Of a DNA stretch of 64,000 bases, positions 6,976 through 47,077 are shown piece after piece; the stretch's first letter is position 1; every line of letters begins with the position of its first letter. A program made the translations under genes and the position numbers. The notes below the pieces were generated by a model, which was given only the letters and a program-made list of their open reading frames with translations, had not been told where the DNA came from and made no database searches. This DNA is from Thelonectria olida (taxonomy: Eukaryota; Ascomycota; Sordariomycetes; Hypocreales; Nectriaceae): positions 3,906,001-3,970,000 of the forward strand of contig JAGPYM010000001.1 in NCBI GenBank assembly GCA_020736575.1, in the 5' to 3' direction.

Positions 6976-8703
6976 ATGGACTCGGAGGCACCCGTTCAGC
7001 CCGCAACGGCGAGACAACGCTCTCGTCTTGGTCCGTCACAAGACCCCAACAATCTTCACGAACAAGCCTCCTAACTATAAGTCCAGGCTGTTATACATGT
7101 AAGTTTCGCAAGGTCAAATGCGAAGCAGCTTCGCGACAGTCAGAAACAACCAATGGGGCTCCATCTGGTTGCTCCAACCGCAAACGACTTGGCTTCCAAT
7201 GTCGATGGTCTGCGGGAGAGCAGTTTGCACCACCCCCAAAACGCAGAAGAACTATTGGCCGTTGCTGTAGACGAATGAGGAGGCCGACGATCCAGGTCCG
7301 GCCGACATCGAACAACCTCATGTGGCGCCCCCGTCTGCCCCTGAGGGCATCCCCGTGAGCCATGGTCTGGACGCTCTGTCTGGCCACTCCTCAGGCCCCT
7401 CTTCATACATCCTGGACGACTTCTTCGTCGATTCCGATGTAGGCCTGCTGTCTGGCCCTCTAGACCTAAGCCTAGCAGGCGAAGGGCTGGAATTCATCCC
7501 TCTGCCGATGGTAGATCCATCGGTGCTGCTCCCATCTCTGAGTCGACGGAAGCTGTCCAGTCTTTGGAATGGCCGCCAATCCGGATTCCTGCCATGACCC
7601 GGGATCAGTTGACAACTGGCAACCATGATGATGGATCGCTCGAATCAAGTAGCGACATGTATCCCTCTGTCAATGACGACAATCGGCAGTTGATCCAGCA
7701 TTATCTGGAGGTCATGAAGGGCTACTCAAAAGTCGACGAACGGTCCAAGGATGCCAACAACTTGTTTATATCAGCCTTCTCCCAGTCTCTCCTTTTCCCA
7801 CCACTATTCTACGCCATTCTCGCCTTCTCAGCTTCCCACATGTCAATCCAGGATGAATCATACGTCGCCCAAGCAACAAACTTTGACCGTCTCGCAACAG
7901 AATCGTTCGAGACATTCAAGCGAGACCACCAAGCAGAAGTTGAGGGTCTCCTATCAGCCTTGTTCGTCCGTATCAAAAAGGTCCATGTCATGGGAGGTAG
8001 TGCCGACTCCTTTCTGGCTCTCATCTCAGCTGCTTCTGATATCGTCGCAACCGAGCATGGCGCTGCAACTTTGCAGCCTCCCACTGCCTTGGCCAGACGC
8101 ATCATCCTCCGACTCGCCATTCTGGATTCCTGGGCCGCCTGCTATCGCCTGGATGGTGGTGCCCTCATATCCCGGCTGAAGAAAATTCCGTCATTGGCGT
8201 TCATCTTTGACTCCAAAATTGACGGGGCGGAATCCTTGGGAGCCGTCGTCAACTTGCTTCGTGCCAATATGCTTCGTATGCACGTCGCCAGATGGAAAGC
8301 GAATTCATTGGCTCGCCTCCGCTTCGGACAGATCAAGTCAAGTCTCTCTATGCGATATTAAGAGCGAGATCGATCGATGGGAACGGCAGATGGATAGGGA
8401 GCCAAATACGACGGCTCGGGCGAAGAGGGTGCGCTTGGTTCGACAGCCTACAGTTCTTTCGCGGTCCTCTCTGCACTCCATTCGGCCTTGTTGTATCTCT
8501 ACCACATATATGTGAGTTTTCTTCCTCCGACCCCTCATCCGCTCTCTCTATTGACCGCAAAGAAGCCTCTGCCATCCATCAGGCAGGATGTCTCCATCTC
8601 CACAATCCTCCTACCAGCTCCAAGTCTACCGTATTACCTCGCGAGCTGGTTCACCGTCGTTAATATTACCTTCTTCCCTTTTCCTAGCCGGCCTACTAAC
8701 TGA
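6976..8703 (+). pseudogene. Decayed Zn2Cys6 transcription factor (ARCA-like)
   Basis: This is the remains of a fungal nuclear regulator. An ATG at 6976 opens a typical N-terminus (MDSEAPVQPATARQRSRLG) that stops at 7072. The zinc cluster follows in another frame at 7089-7190: PGCYTCKFRKVKC, then CSNRKRLGFQC. The family form is CSNCKRL, so one zinc-binding Cys has become Arg (CGC). The linker (7322-7597), the alpha-helical regulatory domain (about 7590-8360, including a DNRQLIQHYLEVMKGY stretch), the DRWERQMDREP segment (8350-8440) and the LHSALLYLYHIYV segment (8470-8515) each lie in a different frame from their neighbour. No GT-AG pair would explain the shifts. At least three frame breaks plus the lost Cys make a functional product very unlikely. 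The 3' end is approximate. Confidence 0.75.
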
Positions 8704-9637
8704 CGACCCAATCCAGCGTGATTAGGTTTTAAAAGTCTTCGCAAAAGGCGAGCAGTAGGGGGATAACCACTTGAAGCCAAGCCCAAGTGTTAGGGTGGGA
8801 CATAGTAGATGAGGTTATTATTAAGTCGCGATTACATAGAGGGTTACAATCACATAAAGTTTACAGATTAAGAAGTTTATTTACCCTTCACGCGCTCCTG
8901 AAGTTAATACTCACGTTAAGACGCTCGCATTATTAAATTATACTCACTTGGGGGTTAGTTAAGTTAAGTTTGTTATAAGGAGCTGAGGGCGGGTCAGGCG
9001 CCGAGGGCGCGCCAAGCTTTTGCCGTGCCCTTAGTAGCTGTATGCGATGCAGTCTCGCAACGAGTTGCAAGAATTGGTTGATCTTTTTGGCCCTGCCGGA
9101 TTGGTCTATTAGCGGGTTCAGTCACATCGCGCTGACCCTTATATAACCAGCTCTATTAATATATAATAAAATGCTCTTTAACCTCCTTAACTAGCAGGCC
9201 CTAATAGAACTTATAAATAAAGGAAAAACTGACCCTACAGCTTATAAATATATGATTTATAAAAACATCCTTGCAGTTAGTCAACAAATAACTCGGCAAG
9301 CACACCCACCTTCAGGTATCCAAGGGCTCAATCTAACACTCACGATCGCCCCGTTCCATAGTGGCCCAATCTATAGGTAATCACAAAACACCTCTCGGGT
9401 CTTAAAAGATACGAATCTCCTTTTCAGTCGGGCAATTTAAAAAACTCCTCCTCTCGGTCGCAATTAGCAGTAGAGATCAAACTCTCGTTTGATATTCGGC
9501 TCACTTCCTGTTTGCAGAAGGTACAGATGATTAGTACACTCACCAAGTGAGAATGGATGAAAGACCTCTGGTCAAGTTGCTTCGAGCGATCTATAAAAAA
9601 GTTTTAAAAAAACTTAACGGCCTCTGGCTAATAGAGG
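8704..9637. other. AT-rich stretch without genes
   Basis: This is rich in TA and in TTAAGTTAAG-like words, with stops in all frames. It looks like an old degraded repeat, or non-coding DNA at the left border of the virus-like island. A TATA-bearing control region at 9638-9853 points leftwards into it, so a decayed viral gene might be expected here, but no protein similarity could be recognised on the minus strand. The exact left border of the island is not visible. Confidence 0.4.
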
Positions 9638-9853
9638 GGGGCGTCCCGCCTTCTTTATACTCCCACTCGGTCCAACAGGCTGCAGTCCCTGCAGATGTAT
9701 AAACCTCTGGTTCCTATAGAAGTGGATCACCTCATATCCTCGATAATACGAACGGATTGACTCCGCTTCGCTCCGTTACTCTCCCAAGTCTACGCTCTAG
9801 TCATACTTCCTTCCAGCTTATCATGCACTGGTCCCCCGGTTTCCCAGTTTCCT
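9638..9853 (-). repeat. Left copy of a virus-like control region
   Basis: This ~200-bp block aligns by eye, in the same orientation and nearly without gaps, with 14563-14770. Shared elements in order are: a GGGCRTC start; a minus-strand TATA (GTATAAAG at 9653-9660); a 6-bp hairpin CTGCAG-TCC-CTGCAG at 9680-9694; GGTTCCTA; AACGGATT; a CTCCGCTTCGCTCCG word at 9761-9775; CTTCCTTCCA; and ACTGGTCCCCCGGTTTCCC from 9827. I judge identity at roughly 70%; it was not computed. It may be the intergenic or common region of a circular ssDNA virus, here driving leftward transcription. Confidence 0.6.
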
Positions 9854-10433
9854 CTATATACCAAAGTTAAAGGAACCCCTTCAGTCCGGTGCTCGCTTCG
9901 CTCTCACCTCCCCTGTGGGATATAGGGGAAACATTACCCTCGCGCCTTGGGCTTCACTCTATTACATTTCGTGTGAAAAGTGAAGCTATTCGCATTCACA
10001 TGTCCGCTCACTACGTTCGCTCCCGCATTAAAATGAAAAAGATTCTCTTTTCATGTGGAGGGTCGTCCCTTCGGTCCGTAGACCTCACTGCCGTTCGGAA
10101 CCTGCGGTGTTCACTTCGTTCACGACCTTCAGCTACGCTGCGCGTGGCCTTTTTTAAAGGAACTCTACTTATCTTTTGTTCATTCTTACCTCACCCATTT
10201 AGGCTACTTTATGGTGGTGGGGTGAGGCTACGGCATCTACGCAAAAGAGGATCACGATAATGAAATATGGTGTTGATAGCAAATCACAAATCAATTCAAT
10301 CTACCTTCATCACTTCGCTCCCAATCTAACGCGAGTAATCAAGATGGCTCGCTTTTAAAAGGTCGCTCGCTCTTATCTACAACTAAAAACTAAAACTAAA
10401 ACTGAAAACAAACTGTTCTAAAAGAATTAACCA
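9854..10433. other. Non-coding part of the virus-like island
   Basis: This lies between the left control region and the 3' end of the capsid-like gene. It is packed with short TCGCT/TTCGC words: GCTCGCTTCGCTCTC near 9891, GCTCACTACGTTCGCT at 10006-10021 (exact match to 14841-14856), GTTCACTTCGTTCACG near 10112 and GCTACGCTGCGCG near 10132. A CTAAAA-type A-rich run lies at about 10380-10415, next to the capsid-like stop codon. A 123-codon open frame (9889-10260, plus) is a by-product of these words and resembles nothing I know. Confidence 0.4.
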
Positions 10434-11185
10434 CTACTTCACGCGAATATAAATATTCGCATGAACATTCTTCATCCAACCTGTCTGATAAGGCCCCACA
10501 TTGCCTTTGGTCTCAACCCAAGTCTTTATACCACAGAGGATCATGTAGCGATCCCCGACAACTTGACCAAACTCATTACAAACGGGCACCTCTTTGTCAA
10601 TCTTCCAATAGGCGCGCAAAGACTCGTCGATATAGCTCCCCGCTGCATTGCCACTGCCTGAACCAACAGGGCGCTTCAAAAGATCCCACTTGGCCACACC
10701 AGAGTGAGAACCTTGCGACTTCTTATTCAAGAAACTGTCACCAGTTGGAAGAATGCCCTTCTTCGCCTTGGCACCGAACAAACTTCTGTTATCGACACTC
10801 TCGAAAGCTGCCTGGCCAATAATACCAGCCAAACCCTCGGCCTCACTAAGAGACCAAAACGAATCAACATGGTCCCCCTTTTGACCAGGAATGGGTTGTT
10901 TACCGGCAATAGAAAACTGGGCGCCATTGGCAAGTCCCATGTCATTGAGCTGACCCGACGGCACAGGAACACAAACCGCAAAAGCTTCCATAGGTCCACT
11001 ATGAAAAATGTCCAAATCCAAGGACACACCGGCGATATACACCGCACCCGCAGGGCCCTTCACATTAACAGGATGAGTTGCGACTCCGCGCACATGATCC
11101 CGAACAACCTCGGACACTGGGGCTACCCAGTAATACCTACGCGCTTCACTCCCCCAATCGTGAAGCTTGACAGGATCAGGACTAC

Positions 11186-11193
11186 CTGTAACC
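11186..11193 (+). repeat. hAT target-site duplication, left copy
   Basis: CTGTAACC directly precedes the left terminal inverted repeat and is identical to the 8 bases after the right end. Eight-bp duplications are the hallmark of hAT insertion. Confidence 0.95.
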
Positions 11194-11218
11194 CATACCT
11201 GGGCGTTTGAGTTAACTC
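11194..11218 (+). repeat. hAT left terminal inverted repeat
   Basis: The 25-bp end starts CATACCTGGGCG. It pairs with 14231-14255 with two mismatches and runs into AACTCATGAG subterminal palindromes. Confidence 0.9.
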
Positions 11219-11396
11219 ATGAGTTTCGACCCTTTTAACTCACTCATATGAGTTACGGCCTAGCCATAACTCACTCATGAGTTTAACTCAGACTCATGAG
11301 TCAACTCACCTATAATGATCATGTGACATCGCCAGCTTCCCAAATAGGAAGTTGGTGATAAGAATCTATGGTATTGAAGTGCAGAAAATCGCCGCG

Positions 11397-13669
11397 CTAT
11401 TCAATATCACTAATTTCTATATCAATATCATCATTAGCAATGTCCGGATCACATACTAGCCCCAGCCCACCGTGCCGAGTCCCGACAATATGCCCATTCC
11501 GCATCCAGTTGCCGAGACACTCAACTTCCTGCAGCCGCTCGCACGTCATCGACAGCCGGTCCCATGATGCGGTCCTACGAGCGCCTGAGAAGGTCCTTTC
11601 TGGCTCTGCCGACTGAGGGCTTATCGAGAGTATATCGATGGCCATACGGCTAAGGCGTGGAAACTGCCGTCGTTGTTCAATGCGACACCACCACTCCAGA
11701 GGTTTGCAATCGATCTTGACAGCCGGAGAATTAATAAATGCGTCTAGGTTATCGCCATCGGTTGAAAGAGCCGTCTCGACCTCCATCTCCTGTAGCAATA
11801 GCTGTAGCTGCGAAGGCGGCTTCCCCGGCGCAGCTGGCATATCCTCCGGAGTAGTTTCTATGTCTCCATCGATATTGGTATTGTATTCCTCCTCCCATAT
11901 TTGCCGGGCTCCCACAATCGCTGGATTAATCCACGCACTCTTCCAGTTCTTATCCAAGTATGCTTTTCGACAGCGTGGATCGAGAAGAAGAGCGGCGACG
12001 TAAACGGGAGCCTCATCAGACATAGAGTAGTATTTATCGAGTACAAACCATCCCATCTCGATAGAATGGAGCATACGGCTATCATGGAACTCCGGGGTCG
12101 AGTAGTGTATCTAACAAATTAGTTAAAGGCTGTCTCTTTAACGGAGATAGACCTTACCTTCGCTTTCTCAAAGTGGCTGAGAAGACCATCCATCAGCCGC
12201 AGCGTACTGCAGAGGCTCGCTTTATCGCCTTCTGTTATCAAAGTTGCCTCGGTAAAGGGCTGGAGGAAAGTATGCGTTTTCGACAGTATATCCCAGTCGG
12301 CGCCTGATAGAAGATGAGCACAGCCGATGTCCTTGTCATGGTCTACCATAAACTGGACGATCTGTGCCTTCTTATCGAGGGCGACACTGATAACTTTATA
12401 CCATGAGGACCACCGTGTTGCGTTATCGATCCCGAGACTGCGACCCACAGCTTCGCGCCAGTTATCACTATGGATTGGAGAGCTTCCAATCCAGACTGCG
12501 AGATGGTGGAGCTTCTGGAGAGCATTAATGCCTTCCCATCCGCTAAATTCTAATTGCTGAGTAGTCCTCTCTCTCGTCGGAGGTCTCTGCTGTCTCCCCT
12601 GGTTCTCCTCTGATGTGTGATCCACCGTGGTATCGGGTCCTGAAAGCGTATTCTCATTCAGAGCAGTAGAGAAGGTTTCGATAGACTGCGCACCAGCGGC
12701 GTTGCCGGCGGCATTAAGGGCAGCGCGTAAAGCTTCTTTCGAGCGCGCGAGAAGGAAAGCTTGAAGGGAAAGGTTAATAATATGGCCGAAACAGCGGACA
12801 CGGCGGCGGACAGGATCGAAGATTATCTAGACGAAACTCAGCTGGCACAGCCATAGAAATTTATCTTTACTTACTCCTCGCCCGTGAAGTAGCTTCTTTG
12901 ATAAAGCTTCTAGGCAGGTATTGTTCGAGGATGCGTTATCCCCAGTATGATAACCCACGCGTCGAATTTCGAATCGCCCCAAGACATCAGCGATCAGGCC
13001 GGCCTGGGACTCGCCAGAGTGGTCTTTTCGACACTCTAGCAGACCTAGAAGCGCCTTTCGAAGTTTATAGCCCTTATCGACCCACTGTCCGCATACTGCA
13101 AGCATACCATGTCGGTGTGGTGATGTCCAGAGATCAGATGAGAGGTGAATCATCGAAATGGCAGATTGAAGGGACTCGGCCAACTGAGCAGCGTAGAACT
13201 CATAGCTAGCTGAGATGTAGCGCATCACTGTACGTCGGGAGGTAATCAGACTATCCTCGATGGCAGGATTACATGCTAGTGCTAGGTCCTTTATCTCATC
13301 CCACTCAACCATCGAAAAGGCCACTCTGCGACGTGTGAGAAGGCTGATAAGAGCTTCGATGTAAGCCTGTCGATTGAAGGCATTCCGTAATGCCGCTTCG
13401 GATGGCGTAGTCGATGATGTGATATATACGTCGAGCGATTGCTGAGATTGATTCTGCCGGCTAGAGAGCCCGATCAGATATGGATGATTATTCCTTATGT
13501 GGCGCCGCGCATTGCCCTTATAGCCATCCTTCCATGGCTTCGCCGTACAGTATAAGCAGACATATAAAGTGCGAGGCTTCGCCTTCTCTCTGGTGAAAAA
13601 TCTCTCAATATCGATGAAGTCGGGGGCGGAAGAGGGTGTCCTCGGTACAGACGAAGTTTCGGATGCCAT
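11397..13669 (-). CDS. hAT family transposase
   Basis: This is the cut-and-paste transposase of the surrounding element. It has three exons, 12875-13669, 12158-12826 and 11397-12110, with introns of 48 and 47 nt (GTAAGT...TCTAG; GTAAGG...GTTAG). The reading frame is continuous for 725 aa. Domains in order are: a BED-type zinc finger near residues 35-65 (CLYC...ARRHIRNNHPYL); the RNase H-like core with the first acidic residue in LSSDLWTS and the second in YHTGDNASSN; RCFGHIINL after intron 1; NATRWSSWYKV; and the C-terminal hAT dimerisation region (LEWW..., SISPQSAEPERTFSGARR). All key family residues I can check are present, so the enzyme may be functional. It is transcribed in the same direction as the gene it interrupts. 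Confidence 0.93.
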
Positions 13670-14230
13670 GGCGATGGCTTGATGGTATAGATAATGGATC
13701 GAGGCGATGAAGAGTCTGCCGATAAATCGTACTAGAAACTGCAGTAGCTACTCGGAAGACTTTTTTTACCTTAAGATTCTTGTCAATTTCTGATGGATCT
13801 GGATCATAGGGATAGAAGCTCTTGATTCTCTATCTAATGAGTGGAAACAGGTCGGTTTCTTATACATAAGATGAATTGGTCCTCCGGGGCCGTTGTGTTT
13901 AAGAACTTGCTTTTTGGGAGACATAGGTGATACCAACCACTGACGGGAAGTCCGGACTTCCGGGCTGCCGGTCTGAACTGCCTGTCTGAACTGCTGGAAG
14001 ACCTTCCTTCCGGTTTGATCAAATGTATGACCCTTTGGTCTGTTGGATGTGATAATTCTGAATATAGAGGGGTTGCGATAGATTAGATTAGATTATAGAG
14101 CGGGCTAATCAGACGCCAGGAACGCCGTTGTGAGTTTATGAGTTAACTCATGAGTTAGCAGCGATAACTCAGACTCAACTCATATGAGTTTTATGAGTTA
14201 GAGTTATGAGTTAACTCATGAGTTAGGTTT

Positions 14231-14255
14231 GAGTTAACTAAAATGCCCAGGTATG
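14231..14255 (-). repeat. hAT right terminal inverted repeat
   Basis: Read on the minus strand it begins CATACCTGGGCA. The first 11 bases are identical to the left end, and 23 of 25 match overall. Confidence 0.9.
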
Positions 14256-14263
14256 CTGTAACC
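14256..14263 (+). repeat. hAT target-site duplication, right copy
   Basis: CTGTAACC is identical to 11186-11193 and directly abuts the right inverted repeat. Confidence 0.95.
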
Positions 14264-14562
14264 TGAATGGAACGAGACTCCCCATACTTTTGGGTCATCA
14301 CAAGATTGCGAAGATCCCTCTGGGAGACCTTAGCTATGGAGTCGGTCTTCTTCACCGACTTCTTCTTCACTCCTCCCTTCTTTGTCGTGCGTGGCTTCCT
14401 CCGTGGCCCATAGGAAAGATAGGTCTTCGGACCCGAGCGATACTCACGGTCTCCAGAATAGGGTCGACTCCGTCTAGAATAATACGCCATGTCTCTGACC
14501 TGTGCAAAAGGTGACTGAACGAGAACAACTGCTTCCAGCAAGTTGAAAGGAAAAAAGAGGCC

Positions 14563-14770
14563 GGGCATCTCTGCCCTTTTATACTCATCCTGGGGTTGCG
14601 GTCCCCGCAAACGTAGGCACACCTTGTTCCTACGATTATGGATCCCCACCTTCGGTCGTGTGGTACCACAACGGAATTACGTCGCTCCGCTCGTCCATTC
14701 TCTTAGTACCAACTCTCTCCTTCCACTCGCCCTCGTTCTATGGACTGGTTTCCCGGTTTCCCGGTTTCCC
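14563..14770 (-). repeat. Right copy of the virus-like control region
   Basis: This is the counterpart of 9638-9853 and lies just upstream of the capsid-like gene. It carries the TATA box (14576-14583), a hairpin TTGCGG-TCC-CCGCAA at 14596-14610, a GTCGCTCCGCTCG word near 14681, and ACTGGTTTCCCGGTTTCCC from 14744. Compared with the left hairpin, two stem base pairs differ by compensating changes (C-G to T-A, A-T to G-C) while the TCC loop is unchanged. This suggests the structure is selected. Confidence 0.6.
14576..14583 (-). promoter_or_regulatory. TATA box of the capsid-like gene
   Basis: TATAAAAG on the minus strand lies 86 nt upstream of the ATG at 14490. The left control-region copy has a matching TATAAAG at 9653-9659, so the element is conserved between the copies. 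Confidence 0.5.
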
Positions 14771-14879
14771 TCATCACTCGGCTATCTATACTCCTATATC
14801 GTTCTATGGCCTCGCTGCGCTTAATATATAGGGATCACAAGCTCACTACGTTCGCTGTCGGTCACTGCACTCGATCCTT

Positions 14880-15710
14880 CACCAGTCGCTTTGTTATTTA
14901 ATTTCTTCCATGTGATGTTGATCGTGAGACAAGGGAAAATCCCCATCACGGCAAACCAGATGCCCAAGAGCCGAACATTGCTCTTCTCACAGTCCTCAAT
15001 AGCTGCAAGGAGCAAGTACTCTACCCCTCCCATATCCGAACGGGCTGCGATGACAAAGCCACGGTGGCCGAATCGATCGGAGAAGAAGGCCGCAGCGATG
15101 CAGAGGCAGAATGACACCGCATAGGGAGGCGCCGTCAGGCCCTGAGCAATAATGCTGGAATATCCAAGTTTTGGACGATGGTGGGGAGGAAGTTGGCGAG
15201 CCCAGCAAAAGAATAGTTGCAACAAAAATGGATGGCTGCGTGGACATAGGGTTGGTAGTCGCCGAGGCCTGCTGTCACTTGTTTCTAGTTGAGTTTGCTC
15301 TTGGCCGTCGTGTCTCTCGTGGCGAGTCGAGCAACAGATGCTTCCTTTTCCTCTTCGCTGAACAACTTGGCGGCTTGAGGAGAGTCGGGGAGCAAGAAGT
15401 AAACAAAAGGGCAACGATAATGGTTGGGGCACCCTCTAAGCTCCTTGTTAGGGACAACAGATGAGACTTGCGCGTGGATGCATTGCTACTCACCGATGAG
15501 CAAAATCAGCCTCCAAAGCCCGATTGAGGCGTTGGCTTTGGATATGCCGTACACGAGCGACGCCGCAAATCAATTTGCGAGAGGAGTTTCCAAAGCAACG
15601 TGGTGGTCCATTCGAAGAGTTAGCTCTGGATTCTTTGAAACTACTTTGACATGTGTTCGCCTGATGAACGTCCGCCTTGTCGGCGATTTCGAGGTTTGTC
15701 ATCATTTGGG
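14880..15710 (-). pseudogene. Truncated Dal5-type MFS permease remnant
   Basis: This is the remains of an allantoate/anthranilate-type (Dal5 family) permease. Clear segments are ASIGLWRLILLI near 15530, an apparent intron starting GTGAGTAGC, then LEGAPTIIVALLF, LLPDSPQAAKLFSEEEK, YSFAGLANFLPTIVQ, LGYSSIIAQGLTAPPY, FFSDRFGHRGF and GIWFAVMGIFPCLTINITW. These lie in different frames with at least two in-frame stops (TAG after AKSKLN near 15290, TGA within the exon near 15570). Family similarity ends abruptly near 14880, exactly where the virus-like island begins, and the last membrane helices are missing. This suggests the island inserted into, or recombined with, this gene. The 5' limit is approximate. 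Confidence 0.75.
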
Positions 15711-16231
15711 GTAAAAATAAAGAAGATCTGCATGTTTGCAGAAGAGAGGCAAGTTGATGCCGAAGGACTGGCTGTTCTTAAACGGGGTGCCTCATGCGCA
15801 TTTTATGTAGCAACTACCAGGTCAGTCGCCCGTGCAACATGGCGATAGATGAAAGTAACAAGATAACCGCAGGCTTTCCGAATGACACGCAACATGAGCT
15901 TGACAACTCACTTTTTCTATCCGCTGCCCCGCAAACCATCCCCATTCATCAATCATCTATACCCTGGATTTGAATACCAAGCCTCGGAAGAGATTCCATT
16001 TCTGTTACGATTGGGCTTTTACGGCTTCAGTAGTCGGTTCATTTCATTCGTGGTGTAATCCAAACTTCTTGACTCGGGTGCAGATGTGCCAACCCGCCTA
16101 TAGCTTAATTACAACTAATAATTCAATTCTGACGACTAACGTAAATACTCTATCCATGAACTGCCTTATGCTATCCAAAGACTGAAGGTAAACCTATCTA
16201 TGATACAAGTTGCGTGTTTCTCTTACAATCC
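15711..16231. other. Intergenic, no gene seen
   Basis: No open frame or RNA gene is recognised here. It may include further unrecognisable 5' remains of the adjacent permease pseudogene, and the 3' flank of the next gene. Confidence 0.4.
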
Positions 16232-17053: not shown

Positions 17054-17896
17054 GGTGGTTGATTTTTGCTTGTTTGTGATTTGGTATTGAGGAACAATAG
17101 CGGTTAAACGAGGACTCGAGGAGTGCTGCCCAGTTAAGTAGGAATGAGTGCGAGGGTGGCAATAGCACGGTTTTATTAAAGTCGCAGCCAAGCACCAAGA
17201 CAGGCCATGCAACGAGCCCCAGGGGCTGTCCCTATATAATGACGTTTGGAGTCAACAAGTGGAGAAGATGCAATGGTGAAACAAGAAAGGCGGAGCAAGG
17301 TGGTTGGTATTCGTACTTCGTATATCCGTAGGGCTGGCGTTGATGCGTCCTAAGGGAGTGCATTTGAACCCATGATGTACGAAGTAAGCCTCTCCGTTGA
17401 CTCTTCATTATGGTCATTTTGGCTCATTCTTTGCAGAAACTACCTTGTCTTCCTACCCAACTTTCGGAATTTAGAAGGAGTTGGCCCCTGTTAATTTCGC
17501 ATGATCTGCGAATACATTATGGCGGAGTCCTGAGTGCACTGCCCGGTCGACATGGTTGAACCAACAAACACCAGCTCAACGGCCTACGTAATAGTGCTGG
17601 CACGTCACGAAGGATCGTTTCCACCAAGCAGCCCATGTTTACCGATCTGGCAATGGCCGACATGTGTGCCTTGCTTAACTTATGGGGAAGCCTGTCGGAA
17701 TAAGATAGAACTGAAAGACTTCAAAACCAAACCTCCAGCCACCAGGTCCGAGTTCACCATGGACCCTATTTAAACAAAGACTATGATTGGTTGCATGTGA
17801 CCAGGGTGCAAACGCGCCACAGCATGACCAGAAACCCGAGGATAGACTGGAATCCTTCATTCCAGAATCCTCAAGTTGCCCACTACAGTCGACTTC
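17054..17896. other. Divergent intergenic region
   Basis: This holds the 5' flanks of the GPI protein (minus) and the HET protein (plus). TATA-like CTATATAATG is at about 17232. No gene is seen. Confidence 0.4.
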
Positions 17897-20140
17897 ATGC
17901 GCCTCATCAACGTTGACAATTACCGCGTCGAGGAATTCCCGAGCAATGAAGCCCCGCCGTATGCCATACTCTCCCACACCTGGGGCATCGAGGAAGTGAC
18001 GTTGAAGGATCTCGAGGCCGGCGACTGGAAGGATCGCCAAGACAAGAGAGAGGGCCATGAGAAGATAACCGGTTGCTGCGCTGCCGCTGCCGCTGAGGGT
18101 TTCGGCTACGCATGGATTGACACCTGTTGCATTGACAAGACGTCCAGCGCAGAGCTCTCCGAGGCCATCAATTCCATGTTTCGCTGGTATCATGAAAGCG
18201 CTATATGCTATGCCTACCTGAGAGACGTGGACAGCGCGCAGGACCCCAATAGTCCAGACTCCGACTTCTCCAAGAGCAGGTGGTTTACTCGTGGCTGGAC
18301 TCTTCAGGAGCTGCTTGCCCCGACGGAAATTGTATTCCTCGGGCGCGACTGGGGCGAGATTGGTACCAAGAACACGCTGCAGGGCGCCATCACCAAGATC
18401 ACGCGGATAAGCAGCGCGGCGTTGGAGGACCGGAGCTTCACCAACTATAGCGTTGCGCAGAAGATGTCGTGGGCCGCAGGCCGATGCACTACGAGGCCTG
18501 AGGACGAGGCCTACTGCTTGCTGGGGTTGTTCGATGTTAACATGCCGCTGCTCTATGGGGAGGGCCAAGGGGCGTTCTTCCGATTGCAAGAGGAGATCAT
18601 GAAGCGAACAGATGACGAAAGCATTTTTGCGTGGTCTCATCCAACTGATGAGCAGTCGCACGTCCATCTAACAGGCTTGCTCGCCTCGTCACCAAATCTG
18701 TTCAGAGACTCATCAGATGTTACCATGGTGGTGGATAATGCGAAAAAGGCTGTGTCGAGGGGACTGGATTCATCCGAGAGCTATGTGAACGCTTTCGAGC
18801 TCGTCCGACAGCTTGTCCGAGTGAGACTCCCGATTCTCGGCCCTCTGAAGGGGATGGAGTTGATTGCTAGGGGACCAGTGCCGGACTTGTGCAGTTTCTC
18901 GCACGCTGACCCGGAAACCGAGAGTCCTCTACAGCTTGATCATGTGAAGGCATCTGGCCCCGACGTCAAGCCTACGCCGAGCATCAGCGTTCCCGAAGGA
19001 GAGTCGCCTAGAATACCGGGTCCTTCAATAGACTGGGTCTTGGGAGACGATGATCTTCAGGCATCGCAGAGCAACGAGGCGCCAAGACCGCAACTTTGCC
19101 TCGATCCGTCCGACGGGGAGGATTCTATTGAGCTTGTGACTAAAATAGAGGAGGAAGAGGGTAACCAGGGGTTCTTTGGTGAAGACGCGATTGGCGCACT
19201 CAGCGATCAGCAGGAAGCCGGGGAAAAGGATGGTCCACGTTCGAAGTGGCGATGGTACATTTACGAGCCTGTTGTTGCAGTCCCGCTAATGTGCACCATT
19301 GATGAAAAGCCTCTTGCGCTACTACTCTCCAGAGGTTCATTTCGCTCGAGGGAAGAAAGCGTTTTATACAGGCTGCACTCGCCGTCCCTTGTCTGCATCC
19401 AGGACTTTTCCCACTTCACCGAGATGTTGTCGCCGCTCCGGACCACATACGTTTACGCCTCTACCAAATACAACCACGAGATTGAGTCGTCAAAGCCTGT
19501 TACCTCAGAGGTACGCATCGGACCAATGCTTGACATGGGATATGCTTTGCTTGAGGAGCAAGGGTTTGATTGGGCGTTTGATCCAAAGGAGAAGAAGTTG
19601 GTCAAGATTCGTGACCGCCACCAGTCGCGTAGTCACATGATCGTCTTCCGCCATCGAACGCAAGACACGCAAAACTACCCCTCCATCTTCATGCTGGTAA
19701 GCTTCAGTGAGCCTCGCGTTGGCATCCTCCGCGGCTCGTTGATCCCTGTGCTTGGCAGTAACGTCTGGCGCGCTCAAATGGGCAATCAGAGCCGAGCCGA
19801 GTTTGCAATGGGCATCAATGGAAAGGCCATCATATTGAAGGAGAGGAAACTGGCAAGAGTCAAGTATTTAAGTGTGTCAATCGAGCCGCGAGCGTCGACA
19901 GTACGTGGCGCGGATATTACTCCCGTCTTGCGTGGACTGGGAGCCCTGAACATGAGGCTGCAGCGGATTTGGAGCACTTTGGAGGAGAAGAATGAGCATT
20001 CTAGCTTGGACGCTGCAGGGCGCGATGTACAAGCACGAGATGACAGAGGTGCTCTTTCAGTTCAGACTGCCGAAGAGCCCTCTGTGGCACTCGAAACGCA
20101 GGACAGAGATCAGAACAGACAACAACTAGGCAGGGGATGA
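17897..20140 (+). CDS. HET-domain (heterokaryon incompatibility) protein
   Basis: This is a single-exon protein of 747 aa. The ATG at 17897 gives the standard HET start MRLINVDNYRVEEF. The HET domain occupies about residues 1-230 with its diagnostic blocks YAILSHTWG (22-30), GYAWIDTCCIDKTSSAELSEA, CYAYLRDV and SRWFTRGWTLQELLAP. These are followed by EDEAYCLLGLFDVNMPLLYGEG, typical of the HET-D/HET-E group. There is no NACHT or WD40 part. The rest is an uncharacterised C-terminal region with an acidic, low-complexity stretch around 390-450. HET proteins trigger cell death on fusion with an unlike strain. The specificity partner cannot be read from the sequence. The frame is intact. Confidence 0.9.
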   Translation: MRLINVDNYRVEEFPSNEAPPYAILSHTWGIEEVTLKDLEAGDWKDRQDKREGHEKITGCCAAAAAEGFGYAWIDTCCIDKTSSAELSEAINSMFRWYHESAICYAYLRDVDSAQDPNSPDSDFSKSRWFTRGWTLQELLAPTEIVFLGRDWGEIGTKNTLQGAITKITRISSAALEDRSFTNYSVAQKMSWAAGRCTTRPEDEAYCLLGLFDVNMPLLYGEGQGAFFRLQEEIMKRTDDESIFAWSHPTDEQSHVHLTGLLASSPNLFRDSSDVTMVVDNAKKAVSRGLDSSESYVNAFELVRQLVRVRLPILGPLKGMELIARGPVPDLCSFSHADPETESPLQLDHVKASGPDVKPTPSISVPEGESPRIPGPSIDWVLGDDDLQASQSNEAPRPQLCLDPSDGEDSIELVTKIEEEEGNQGFFGEDAIGALSDQQEAGEKDGPRSKWRWYIYEPVVAVPLMCTIDEKPLALLLSRGSFRSREESVLYRLHSPSLVCIQDFSHFTEMLSPLRTTYVYASTKYNHEIESSKPVTSEVRIGPMLDMGYALLEEQGFDWAFDPKEKKLVKIRDRHQSRSHMIVFRHRTQDTQNYPSIFMLVSFSEPRVGILRGSLIPVLGSNVWRAQMGNQSRAEFAMGINGKAIILKERKLARVKYLSVSIEPRASTVRGADITPVLRGLGALNMRLQRIWSTLEEKNEHSSLDAAGRDVQARDDRGALSVQTAEEPSVALETQDRDQNRQQLGRG

Positions 20141-45464: not shown

Positions 45465-47077
45465 TTCTTGAGAATAGTTGATCTTGACGGGGGATAATGC
45501 TCAATGTCTCGGGGTAGTTGGTCTGAGGGTGAAGGCACTTGTTCAACATGTCAAGCACAACCGCATCCCTATATAATAGCGGGGTGGACCAGACTAAATG
45601 GAAAGTATGAACGGCCTCCAACTCAAAGTCAAAAGCAAGCCCCTACCCCATCTTGCAGAGAGGGCTGTACGGCATGACCAAGTGGCCTTGACGGTCTGGA
45701 CCGACTCCTGGAACATCGGAAGTCCCGTTCATGACCACCAGCTTTCCTGATCGGTATTCGATGGTTTCAGCTCATAGTAAGGGGCGGTGTCGACTGGGCA
45801 AATGCTGCACGAAGGGGGCATCAAAAGACGGGGTGCTATACTGCTGGCGCGGGACTTGTGAATAGAGAGGTTCCTGGTCTGACAACGGAAGTTCAAAACT
45901 ATGGTACTTTGGCGTCGTCATCACACCACAGCCGCAGACGCTAATTCGTTAAACGCAATGGCTGCCAAGCTTCATGATCTAGCCTTGATACGAAATTTAC
46001 GAAAAATACGTGCCAATCCGGGAACACTGCCGAGGACGAGTGCAAGCCCTACAAATTGCCGAGCGAGCCAATGGAGAGACATGGCACAGACTGGCCCTTT
46101 CTTGAGAGGGCGGCCGTGCAACACTTTGGGAGTTATTTGCCGGCTCGTTCATTCCGGAAATGGGCGCTACGGCTTTAACAACGTTGATGTTGACGCCATG
46201 AGAGCGAGTGAGGCGAGCCGAGTAACCGATTATTCGCAGCAGCCCCACAGACCATTTACGACACAGCCTGTGAATACACGACGAGTTTGGGCCGTGTGCC
46301 GAGTATCTTACGAGCTGGCGGAAGTAATAAAGATTAAAAGGGCCCCGCGGACTGCGCCTTGGCAGCATTGACTTTAAGCTGGGATATTCCTCATTCCATA
46401 CGGGACATGTATACTTCATCGGACTGGTGCGTCACAAATCGCATCTTGTCGTATAGGTAAAGGACGTCCACTAAATGAATGGGATGAAAGACTGTGCAAT
46501 GACCTAACCATAAACAACTGGGTGCAGAGTAAAATCCGGCTTGAATCATGCCCATTTCACAGCTAGCCACAACCTCTTAGTCGCATCATTGTTTGCGATG
46601 ACGATGAGGCGCTGGGACGACGGTGAAGCCGGATTACGCGTCGCATAAGGCTGAGCTCTAGAGGCGCCATTCTTAGGATGAGAGCTGGAGAAGACATTGG
46701 TCGAGTGAGTTGTTCCTTTTTCAACCTCTTGTGCCTGGACACGGTATTCCTTGGCGCGTCGCGAGAACAAGGATTGAGTGCATCTAGAGCAACCCCCCAT
46801 TATTTATCCAGGCTCCAACTCTCTCCAAGTTGTCTTCACTACTATGGCCTGCGAAGACTCAGCAACATATTCACCTTGGAATTTTCATCGACTCAATTCA
46901 TGATAATAGGCTGACGTTGCAATGTACTTCGTACCAATTTATATTCTCTATATGATCATCCATCTGCGAACCCATCAATGATGTGTTTTCGTCTTTTTTT
47001 ACCCTATCCCTTGCTTAAAATAGTTCGCATTTCCATATAAACACCTACCAATGAATCAATCCATTTCCTTCAACAAC
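45465..47077. other. Intergenic, 1.6 kb
   Basis: No gene is recognised on either strand; the open frames around 45901-46419 look random. It contains the promoter of the DUF2156 gene and the 3' flank of the purine gene. Confidence 0.45.

What the first reader, a model, noticed from the sequence alone, without database searches (positions are those of the whole stretch)
10434..14490. Endogenous capsid-like gene of circular ssDNA virus type, cut in two by a hAT transposon
Seen: two gene halves on the minus strand flank a transposon with perfect 8-bp duplications. With one duplication copy counted once they total 987 nt, exactly 329 codons, with no stop. The N-terminus is an Arg/Lys/Tyr/Ser-rich arm and the remainder is beta-rich. 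Known: genomovirus coat proteins are ~300-330 aa with such an arm, and genomoviruses and tripartite relatives infect fungi, including Fusarium. Inferred: a relative integrated here and its coat-like frame was still whole when the hAT landed. That implies recent integration or selection on the gene.
Basis: partly seen in the sequence, partly recalled or inferred. Interest (0 to 1): 0.88.

Follow-up and report, generated by a model that had tools for sequence, protein, structure and literature searches.

The report
Capsid-like gene split by hAT transposon
A fungal chromosome carries what looks like one leftover segment of a small circular DNA virus of fungi, a capsid-type gene between two copies of a virus-like control region, later broken by a jumping gene; the viral origin is likely but not proven, because the protein matches nothing found so far.

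Summary
A hAT element (11194-14255, 3062 bp, CTGTAACC on both sides) splits a minus-strand gene into a 227-nt 5' part and a 760-nt 3' part, 987 nt with the stop, in frame across the break. The hAT is young: 20 copies identical over 3062 bp (this one included), 17 of 20 with perfect 8-bp duplications. New here: the gene lies between two directly repeated control regions (9630-9962, 14553-14875; alignment score 127 against at most 70 in 300 shuffles). Both carry tandem GGTTTCCC-type iterons, an array found nowhere else in 52.5 Mb, a perfect hairpin with two compensatory differences, and a TATA box. The repeat unit without the hAT is 1.77-1.85 kb with one ORF, like the capsid segment of the mycovirus BcssDV1 (1.69 kb, CP 327 aa). 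I read it as a capsid-only segment of a circular ssDNA (CRESS-type) mycovirus. Against: the 3' part matches no protein in the collections searched, no usable fold, no canonical nonanucleotide, no Rep found (controls silent). Membership in Genomoviridae is not shown; nor is a Fusarium host. In the survey section that I read, endogenous ssDNA-virus genes of fungi were all Rep.

The parts
14264..14490 (-). 5' part of the capsid-like gene (75 codons + 2 nt): Arg/Lys/Tyr/Ser-rich arm
   Evidence: single match in the genome
10434..11193 (-). 3' part of the capsid-like gene (1 nt + 252 codons + stop TAG)
   Evidence: single match in the genome; no homologue found
11194..14255 (-). hAT transposon with transposase frames on the minus strand
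   Evidence: 26-nt TIRs; Dimer_Tnp_hAT 6.1e-14; 20 identical genome copies including this one
11186..11193 (.). target-site duplication, left copy (CTGTAACC)
14256..14263 (.). target-site duplication, right copy (CTGTAACC)
14553..14875 (.). control region, right copy, upstream of the gene: TATAAAA (minus strand) at 14577-14583, hairpin 14596-14610, three 8-bp iterons 14747-14770
9630..9962 (.). control region, left copy: TATAAA (minus strand) starting at 9659, hairpin 9680-9694, iterons at 9838 (exact) and 9846 (AGTTTCCT)
9963..10433 (.). non-coding spacer 3' of the gene, with the 16-mer GCTCACTACGTTCGCT (10006-10021) that recurs at 14841-14856

Best explanation
This is the integrated remnant of one segment of a circular, Rep-replicated (CRESS-type) ssDNA mycovirus: a single-ORF, capsid-coding circle of about 1.8 kb that entered the chromosome with somewhat more than one unit length, so that a control region flanks the gene on each side. 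In the virus, the control region would serve as promoter (TATA 93 nt before the ATG) and as Rep-binding origin (tandem iterons plus hairpin); the protein would package ssDNA with its basic arm. In the present genome it is broken: after integration a hAT element inserted in codon 76 and split the gene. Shown: the hAT insertion, the repeated control regions, the uniqueness of the iteron array, the youth of the hAT. Inferred: viral origin, the integration itself, capsid function, replication role of the control region. The two control regions probably came from different segments or variants, because they differ by 22% or more while the gene has no stop or frameshift apart from the hAT.
For: Control regions are homologous: SW 127, shuffle mean 43.6, max 70 of 300; 300 other window segments max 56; reverse complement 23; 225 of 287 ungapped columns identical. 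GGTTTCCCNGTTTCC has 3 matches in 52.5 Mb, at two places, both in this element; the backward control has 0. A perfect 6-3-6 hairpin sits at the same place in both copies (9680, 14596) with 2 of 6 pairs changed on both sides and none broken (weak with two sequences: 123 of 500 shuffles reach it, 0 of 6 slides do). Four of the window's 13 perfect 6-3-6 hairpins lie in the element's 1.28 kb of non-coding DNA. Unit length by iteron spacing 4917-3070=1847, by 16-mer spacing 1765. BcssDV1: segments of 1669-1707 nt, one ORF each, CP 327 aa, common regions of about 260 and 38 nt in its segments. Basic arm. If the control regions had been identical at entry and decayed neutrally, and the gene likewise, 5.1 stops would be expected in the two gene pieces (P of none 0.006).
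Against: No detectable similarity of the 3' piece to any protein searched, nor a Gemini_coat match in the genome. Structure prediction unusable. No TAATRTTAY nonamer in the element; the two BcssDV1 nonamers match only with 1 or 2 mismatches, no chance level computed. No Rep family match (controls silent). The control regions are 78% identical with 82 gap columns, or 67% (141 of 211) under a stricter gap cost, whereas BcssDV1 L-CRs are reported above 85.7% within the species. The BcssDV1 paper says that its CP lacks a nuclear localisation signal, unlike the Lys/Arg-rich arm here. No frame over 62 codons follows the left control region.
Confidence: 0.6

Rival explanations
1. A host orphan gene whose neighbour was a tandem duplicate: the left control region is the promoter of a paralogue whose coding part is gone, and the 8-bp repeats are transcription-factor sites.
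For: Both copies are promoter-like, with a TATA box and the same orientation; duplicated promoters diverge faster than coding sequence, and orphan genes are common in fungi (both recalled).
Against: No trace of a paralogous frame left of 9630 and no second copy in the genome; the 3' piece has no relative in 5.8 billion proteins including named fungal ones; the iteron array is absent from the rest of the genome, which is odd for a host regulatory site.
Confidence: 0.22
2. Remnant of another kind of extrachromosomal replicon (a fungal circular plasmid or an undescribed DNA virus that is not of CRESS type).
For: Unit-length repeats, iterons and hairpins suit any iteron-controlled circle; canonical CRESS nonamer and Rep not found.
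Against: The basic, Tyr/Ser-rich arm is capsid-like, and size and one-ORF layout match a segment of an ssDNA mycovirus.
Confidence: 0.13
3. The control-region pair and open frame are a chance assembly of sequence, with no common origin.
For: The 5' piece alone is not longer than chance (59 of 500 shuffles).
Against: SW score far above shuffles and window controls; 3' frame reached by 0 of 500 shuffles; iteron array unique in the genome.
Confidence: 0.03

Closest known systems
[quoted passage not shown]
   Same: One ORF per circle; capsid of 327 aa against 328 codons here; segment 1690 nt against a unit of 1.77-1.85 kb; common regions shared between segments; proposed origin in a stem-loop.
Fusarium graminearum gemytripvirus 1 (FgGMTV1; passages of PMC11708013)
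   Same: Multipartite circular ssDNA mycovirus with a separate capsid segment, DNA-B.
   Different: Not compared by sequence; the host here is not shown to be Fusarium.
Endogenous SsHADV-1-like Rep sequences of fungi (PMC3198968: section 6 and passages)
   Same: ssDNA-virus sequences integrated in fungal genomes.
   Different: In that survey all fungal copies are Rep (302 Rep and 3 capsid overall, capsids only in tobacco and sloth). Here there is a capsid-like gene and no Rep was found.
hAT transposons
   Same: 8-bp TSD, short TIRs, Dimer_Tnp_hAT domain.
   Different: Ordinary member; remarkable only for its very recent spread.

Membership tests
Genomoviridae | Rep with HUH endonuclease and SF3 helicase | tested here: inconclusive
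   PF00799 and PF02407: no match in the genome at E<=10, but no control genome rang either
Genomoviridae | Capsid protein related to known genomovirus capsids | tested here: inconclusive
   3' piece: no hit in 5.8 billion proteins (nr and uniref among the sources) and no significant one in Pfam/PHROGs. Such a search can miss true members: the BcssDV1 CP shares only 12.2% and 13.2% identity with those of FgGV1 and SsHADV1. Viral contigs gave nothing for a genomovirus Rep motif either
Genomoviridae | Nonanucleotide of TAATATTAT type in a stem-loop | tested here: not met
   No TAATRTTAY in the element; the only window match, at 8661, lies outside (best near-matches). BcssDV1, placed in the family, lacks this type too
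CRESS-DNA virus (in general) | Iterons and a stem-loop in a non-coding control region | tested here: met
   Tandem GGTTTCCC and a shared hairpin in both copies; function not tested
CRESS-DNA virus (in general) | Single jelly-roll capsid | tested here: inconclusive
   AlphaFold2 without relatives, 3' piece only, pLDDT 29
   22 K+R in 75 residues; 328 codons by addition of the piece lengths
hAT superfamily | 8-bp TSD, TIRs, transposase with hAT dimerisation domain | tested here: met

The most novel reading that the evidence does not exclude
A capsid segment of an undescribed multipartite ssDNA mycovirus lineage, whose capsid is unlike any protein found in the collections searched, integrated alone, without Rep, into a fungal chromosome, with two non-identical common regions that record recombination between segments; it stayed open until a very recent hAT burst broke it, which may mean that the host had used it.
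Probability: 0.35. Interest if true: 0.7.

Novelty: new variant of a known kind. Interest (0 to 1): 0.5.

Why it matters
Integrated ssDNA-virus genes in fungi are known as Rep genes in the survey read here; capsid genes differ so much that similarity searches rarely find them. A capsid-type segment recognised by its control regions would give a way to find such elements and their free viruses by iteron array and hairpin rather than by protein. It would also add to the multipartite ssDNA mycoviruses, of which the papers seen here describe two (FgGMTV1, BcssDV1), and give a case, older than a hAT burst, of a virus segment kept open in a fungal genome.

Tried and rejected
Rejected: canonical nonamer as origin. 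RIP as the main cause of the divergence between control regions: 29 transitions and 33 transversions; but the dinucleotide indices of both control regions (TA/AT 1.12 and 1.05; (CA+TG)/(AC+GT) 0.92 and 0.87) and of the left flank lean the RIP way, while the 3' gene piece (0.67; 1.27) does not, so some RIP is not excluded. Other elements of the family in the genome: the 15-mer CTCACTACGTTCGCT with up to one mismatch has 9 matches, but its backward control has 7, so it is not specific. Two exact matches are this element; of the other seven (one exact, six with a mismatch) six (L120-L125) were aligned to the control regions: scores 48-74, against 832 and 1788 for the element's own two loci; the C104 match got no locus and was not inspected. 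A cellular family for the 3' piece: DUF6420 at E 0.12, 12.7 bits against a cut-off of 25, and phrog_26018 at E 0.043, are taken as chance. Rfam: nothing in 8000-16000.

Led nowhere: AlphaFold2 of the 3' piece alone, so no fold search was run. Iteron pattern in viral contigs: 85 stretches, 80 listed, on contigs of 4 to 112 kb; tblastn of the two pieces against all 114 loci then held, these 85 included, hit only the window's own loci. A genomovirus Rep-motif pattern found nothing in viral contigs, so that collection may lack such viruses and its silence on the capsid means little. A recalled motif for the missing end of the neighbouring transporter found only one unrelated-looking match, at 46593. 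Papers: endogenous ssDNA-virus capsid genes in fungi were sought; no such report in the rows listed (one search listed 20 of 685). Searches were listings on ssDNA mycoviruses. PMC9603141 (passages) cites a further work on endogenous elements in fungal genomes that I did not see. The Science Advances paper on FgGMTV1 is not held.

Full report
What is there. Reading the window around 10434-14490 gives two minus-strand open frames on either side of a transposon. The transposon runs from 11194 to 14255, 3062 bp. Its ends are 26-nt inverted repeats, 92% complementary, and CTGTAACC stands on both sides. It encodes a hAT dimerisation domain (E 6.1e-14). The genome in which the window lies (52.5 Mb, 165 contigs) holds 20 copies, this one included, over the full 3062 bp at 100%, one full-length copy at 98%, one nearly full-length at 98%, and shorter diverged matches (counts there are lower bounds). 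The sequence was found letter for letter in all 20 loci; in 17 of the 20 the 8 bp on the two sides are identical, in three they differ, which suggests later rearrangement at those three. The insertion in this gene is therefore real and recent.

The gene. The 5' piece is 227 nt and the 3' piece 760 nt, 987 nt together including the stop; the frame fits across the break. The 3' open frame is longer than in any of 500 shuffles, the 5' one by itself is not (59 of 500). The first 75 residues hold 22 Lys/Arg and 5 Asp/Glu. TATAAAA begins 93 nt upstream of the ATG. Each piece has a single match in the genome, itself. I kept the pieces apart throughout.

No relatives found. Pfam up to E 10 gives only a weak match to DUF6420 for the 3' piece and nothing for the 5' piece; PHROGs gives one match at E 0.043 for the 3' piece and none for the 5' piece. 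The other searches used the 3' piece only: the PDB gave nothing; the collection of 5.8 billion proteins returned only the window's own copy, for the whole 3' piece (597 candidates, E<=1) and for its last 103 residues with denser words (4 candidates, E<=10). As a control I searched the neighbouring HET gene: the collection holds named fungal proteins, with ncbi, nr and uniref among the sources, so the silence is not for lack of fungi. It is a word-based search and can miss distant relatives. The viral contig collection was silent, but also for a genomovirus Rep motif taken from a published table, so it may not hold such viruses. Structure prediction without relatives failed (pLDDT 29) and its strands are not used as evidence.

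The control regions. The new observation is that the gene lies between two directly repeated, homologous non-coding regions, 9630-9962 and 14553-14875. Their local alignment scores 127 against a shuffle mean of 43.6 (max 70 of 300), 56 at most for 300 other window segments, and 23 for the reverse complement. 225 of 287 ungapped columns agree, with 82 gap columns; under a stricter gap cost 141 of 211 agree, score 68 against at most 34 in 300 window segments. Inside are three tandem GGTTTCCC units on the right; on the left one exact unit and AGTTTCCT after it. GGTTTCCCNGTTTCC has three matches in the genome, at two places, both here, and the backward control none; single GGTTTCC words do occur elsewhere. 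At the same relative place in both copies stands a perfect 6-bp hairpin with a TCC loop; two of its six pairs differ between the copies and both differences are compensatory. With only two sequences this is suggestive, not proof: 123 of 500 shuffles reach it. Each copy has a TATA box in the direction of the gene. A 16-mer, GCTCACTACGTTCGCT, recurs in both; as a 15-mer with one mismatch allowed it is not specific in the genome (9 matches, backward control 7).

Size and layout. The distance between the iteron arrays is 4917; less 3062 for the hAT and 8 for one TSD copy it is 1847; by the 16-mer it is 1765. That is a unit of about 1.8 kb with one gene. BcssDV1, a tetrasegmented ssDNA virus of Botrytis, has circles of 1669-1707 nt with one ORF each, a capsid of 327 aa, and common regions of about 260 and 38 nt in its segments (PMC10731770, results part 1 of 3). 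The resemblance in layout is close. It is not a membership test: the BcssDV1 protein is not held here, its nonamers are matched only with one or two mismatches, the canonical one is absent, and its capsid is said to lack a nuclear localisation signal, unlike the basic arm here.

Mechanism. I infer a capsid segment of a CRESS-type mycovirus that integrated with both ends in the control region. The sequence to the right of about 14895 reads like the 3' part of a decayed transporter gene (my reading from recalled motifs; Pfam gives no hit; a regular expression for the missing end found nothing convincing in the window). To the left of about 9570 no frame over 62 codons follows the left control region; further left is AT-rich DNA with a dispersed repeat (28 matches including itself). 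So the junctions are probably near 9570 and 14895, but neither is proven. Why do the two control regions differ by 22% or more? If they had been identical at entry and drifted, each lineage would have taken about 0.127 changes per site, and the two gene pieces, drifting alike, should carry about 5.1 stops (P of none 0.006) and many frameshifts (about 40 by the loose alignment, surely an overestimate). They carry none apart from the hAT. Either the two regions were already different, as expected of a junction between two segments or variants, or the gene was under selection, or the non-coding DNA drifted much faster. The first needs least. RIP is not the main cause (29 transitions, 33 transversions), though the dinucleotide indices of the control regions lean that way.

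Rep. No match to PF00799 or PF02407, nor to the coat family PF00844, in the genome at E up to 10, but in none of these searches did a control genome ring, so absence is not shown.

Known work. In the survey section that I read (PMC3198968, section 6, and passages) 305 endogenous circular ssDNA virus matches in eukaryotes comprised 302 Rep and 3 capsid genes; all fungal ones were Rep. Searches of the paper library for endogenous ssDNA-virus capsid genes in fungi showed no such report in the rows listed; most subscription papers are not in that library, and a later work cited in PMC9603141 (passages) was not seen. If the reading is right, this is a new variant of a known kind: an endogenous ssDNA-virus element in a fungus, but capsid-only and flanked by two common regions.

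Verdict. Observation confirmed; viral-capsid interpretation likely (0.6) on anatomy, not established by homology or structure; a Fusarium host is not shown.

Noticed in passing
11194-14255: The hAT family has 20 copies identical over 3062 bp (this one included) plus two at 98%, which points to a very recent burst; 3 of the 20 lack matching flanks, which suggests rearrangement through copies.
   Followed up: partly
8964-9146: Part of a short dispersed repeat next to the left end of the element: 27 other places in the genome, 69-88% identical, many covering only its last 70 bp.
   Followed up: no
14896-15780: Reads by eye as a frameshifted transporter gene of the allantoate permease type (recalled motifs) on the minus strand, ending abruptly at the element; Pfam gives no match for two of its frames.
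   Followed up: partly
17846-20140: HET-domain gene (PF06985); closest relative 85% in an unnamed metagenome; the only entry named Fusarium among the 120 listed matches 51% over 41% of the query.
   Followed up: partly
9560-10433: Non-coding DNA enriched on the + strand only in TTCGCTC/TTCGTTC words (5 in 874 nt; 13 on the + strand of the whole window; 0 in the right control region), perhaps small hairpins of the replicon.
   Followed up: partly
9500-9560: On the minus strand just past the left control region stand GTGAGT, TACTAAT and CAG in intron-like order, inside a stretch of about 59 open codons without ATG; may be chance.
   Followed up: no
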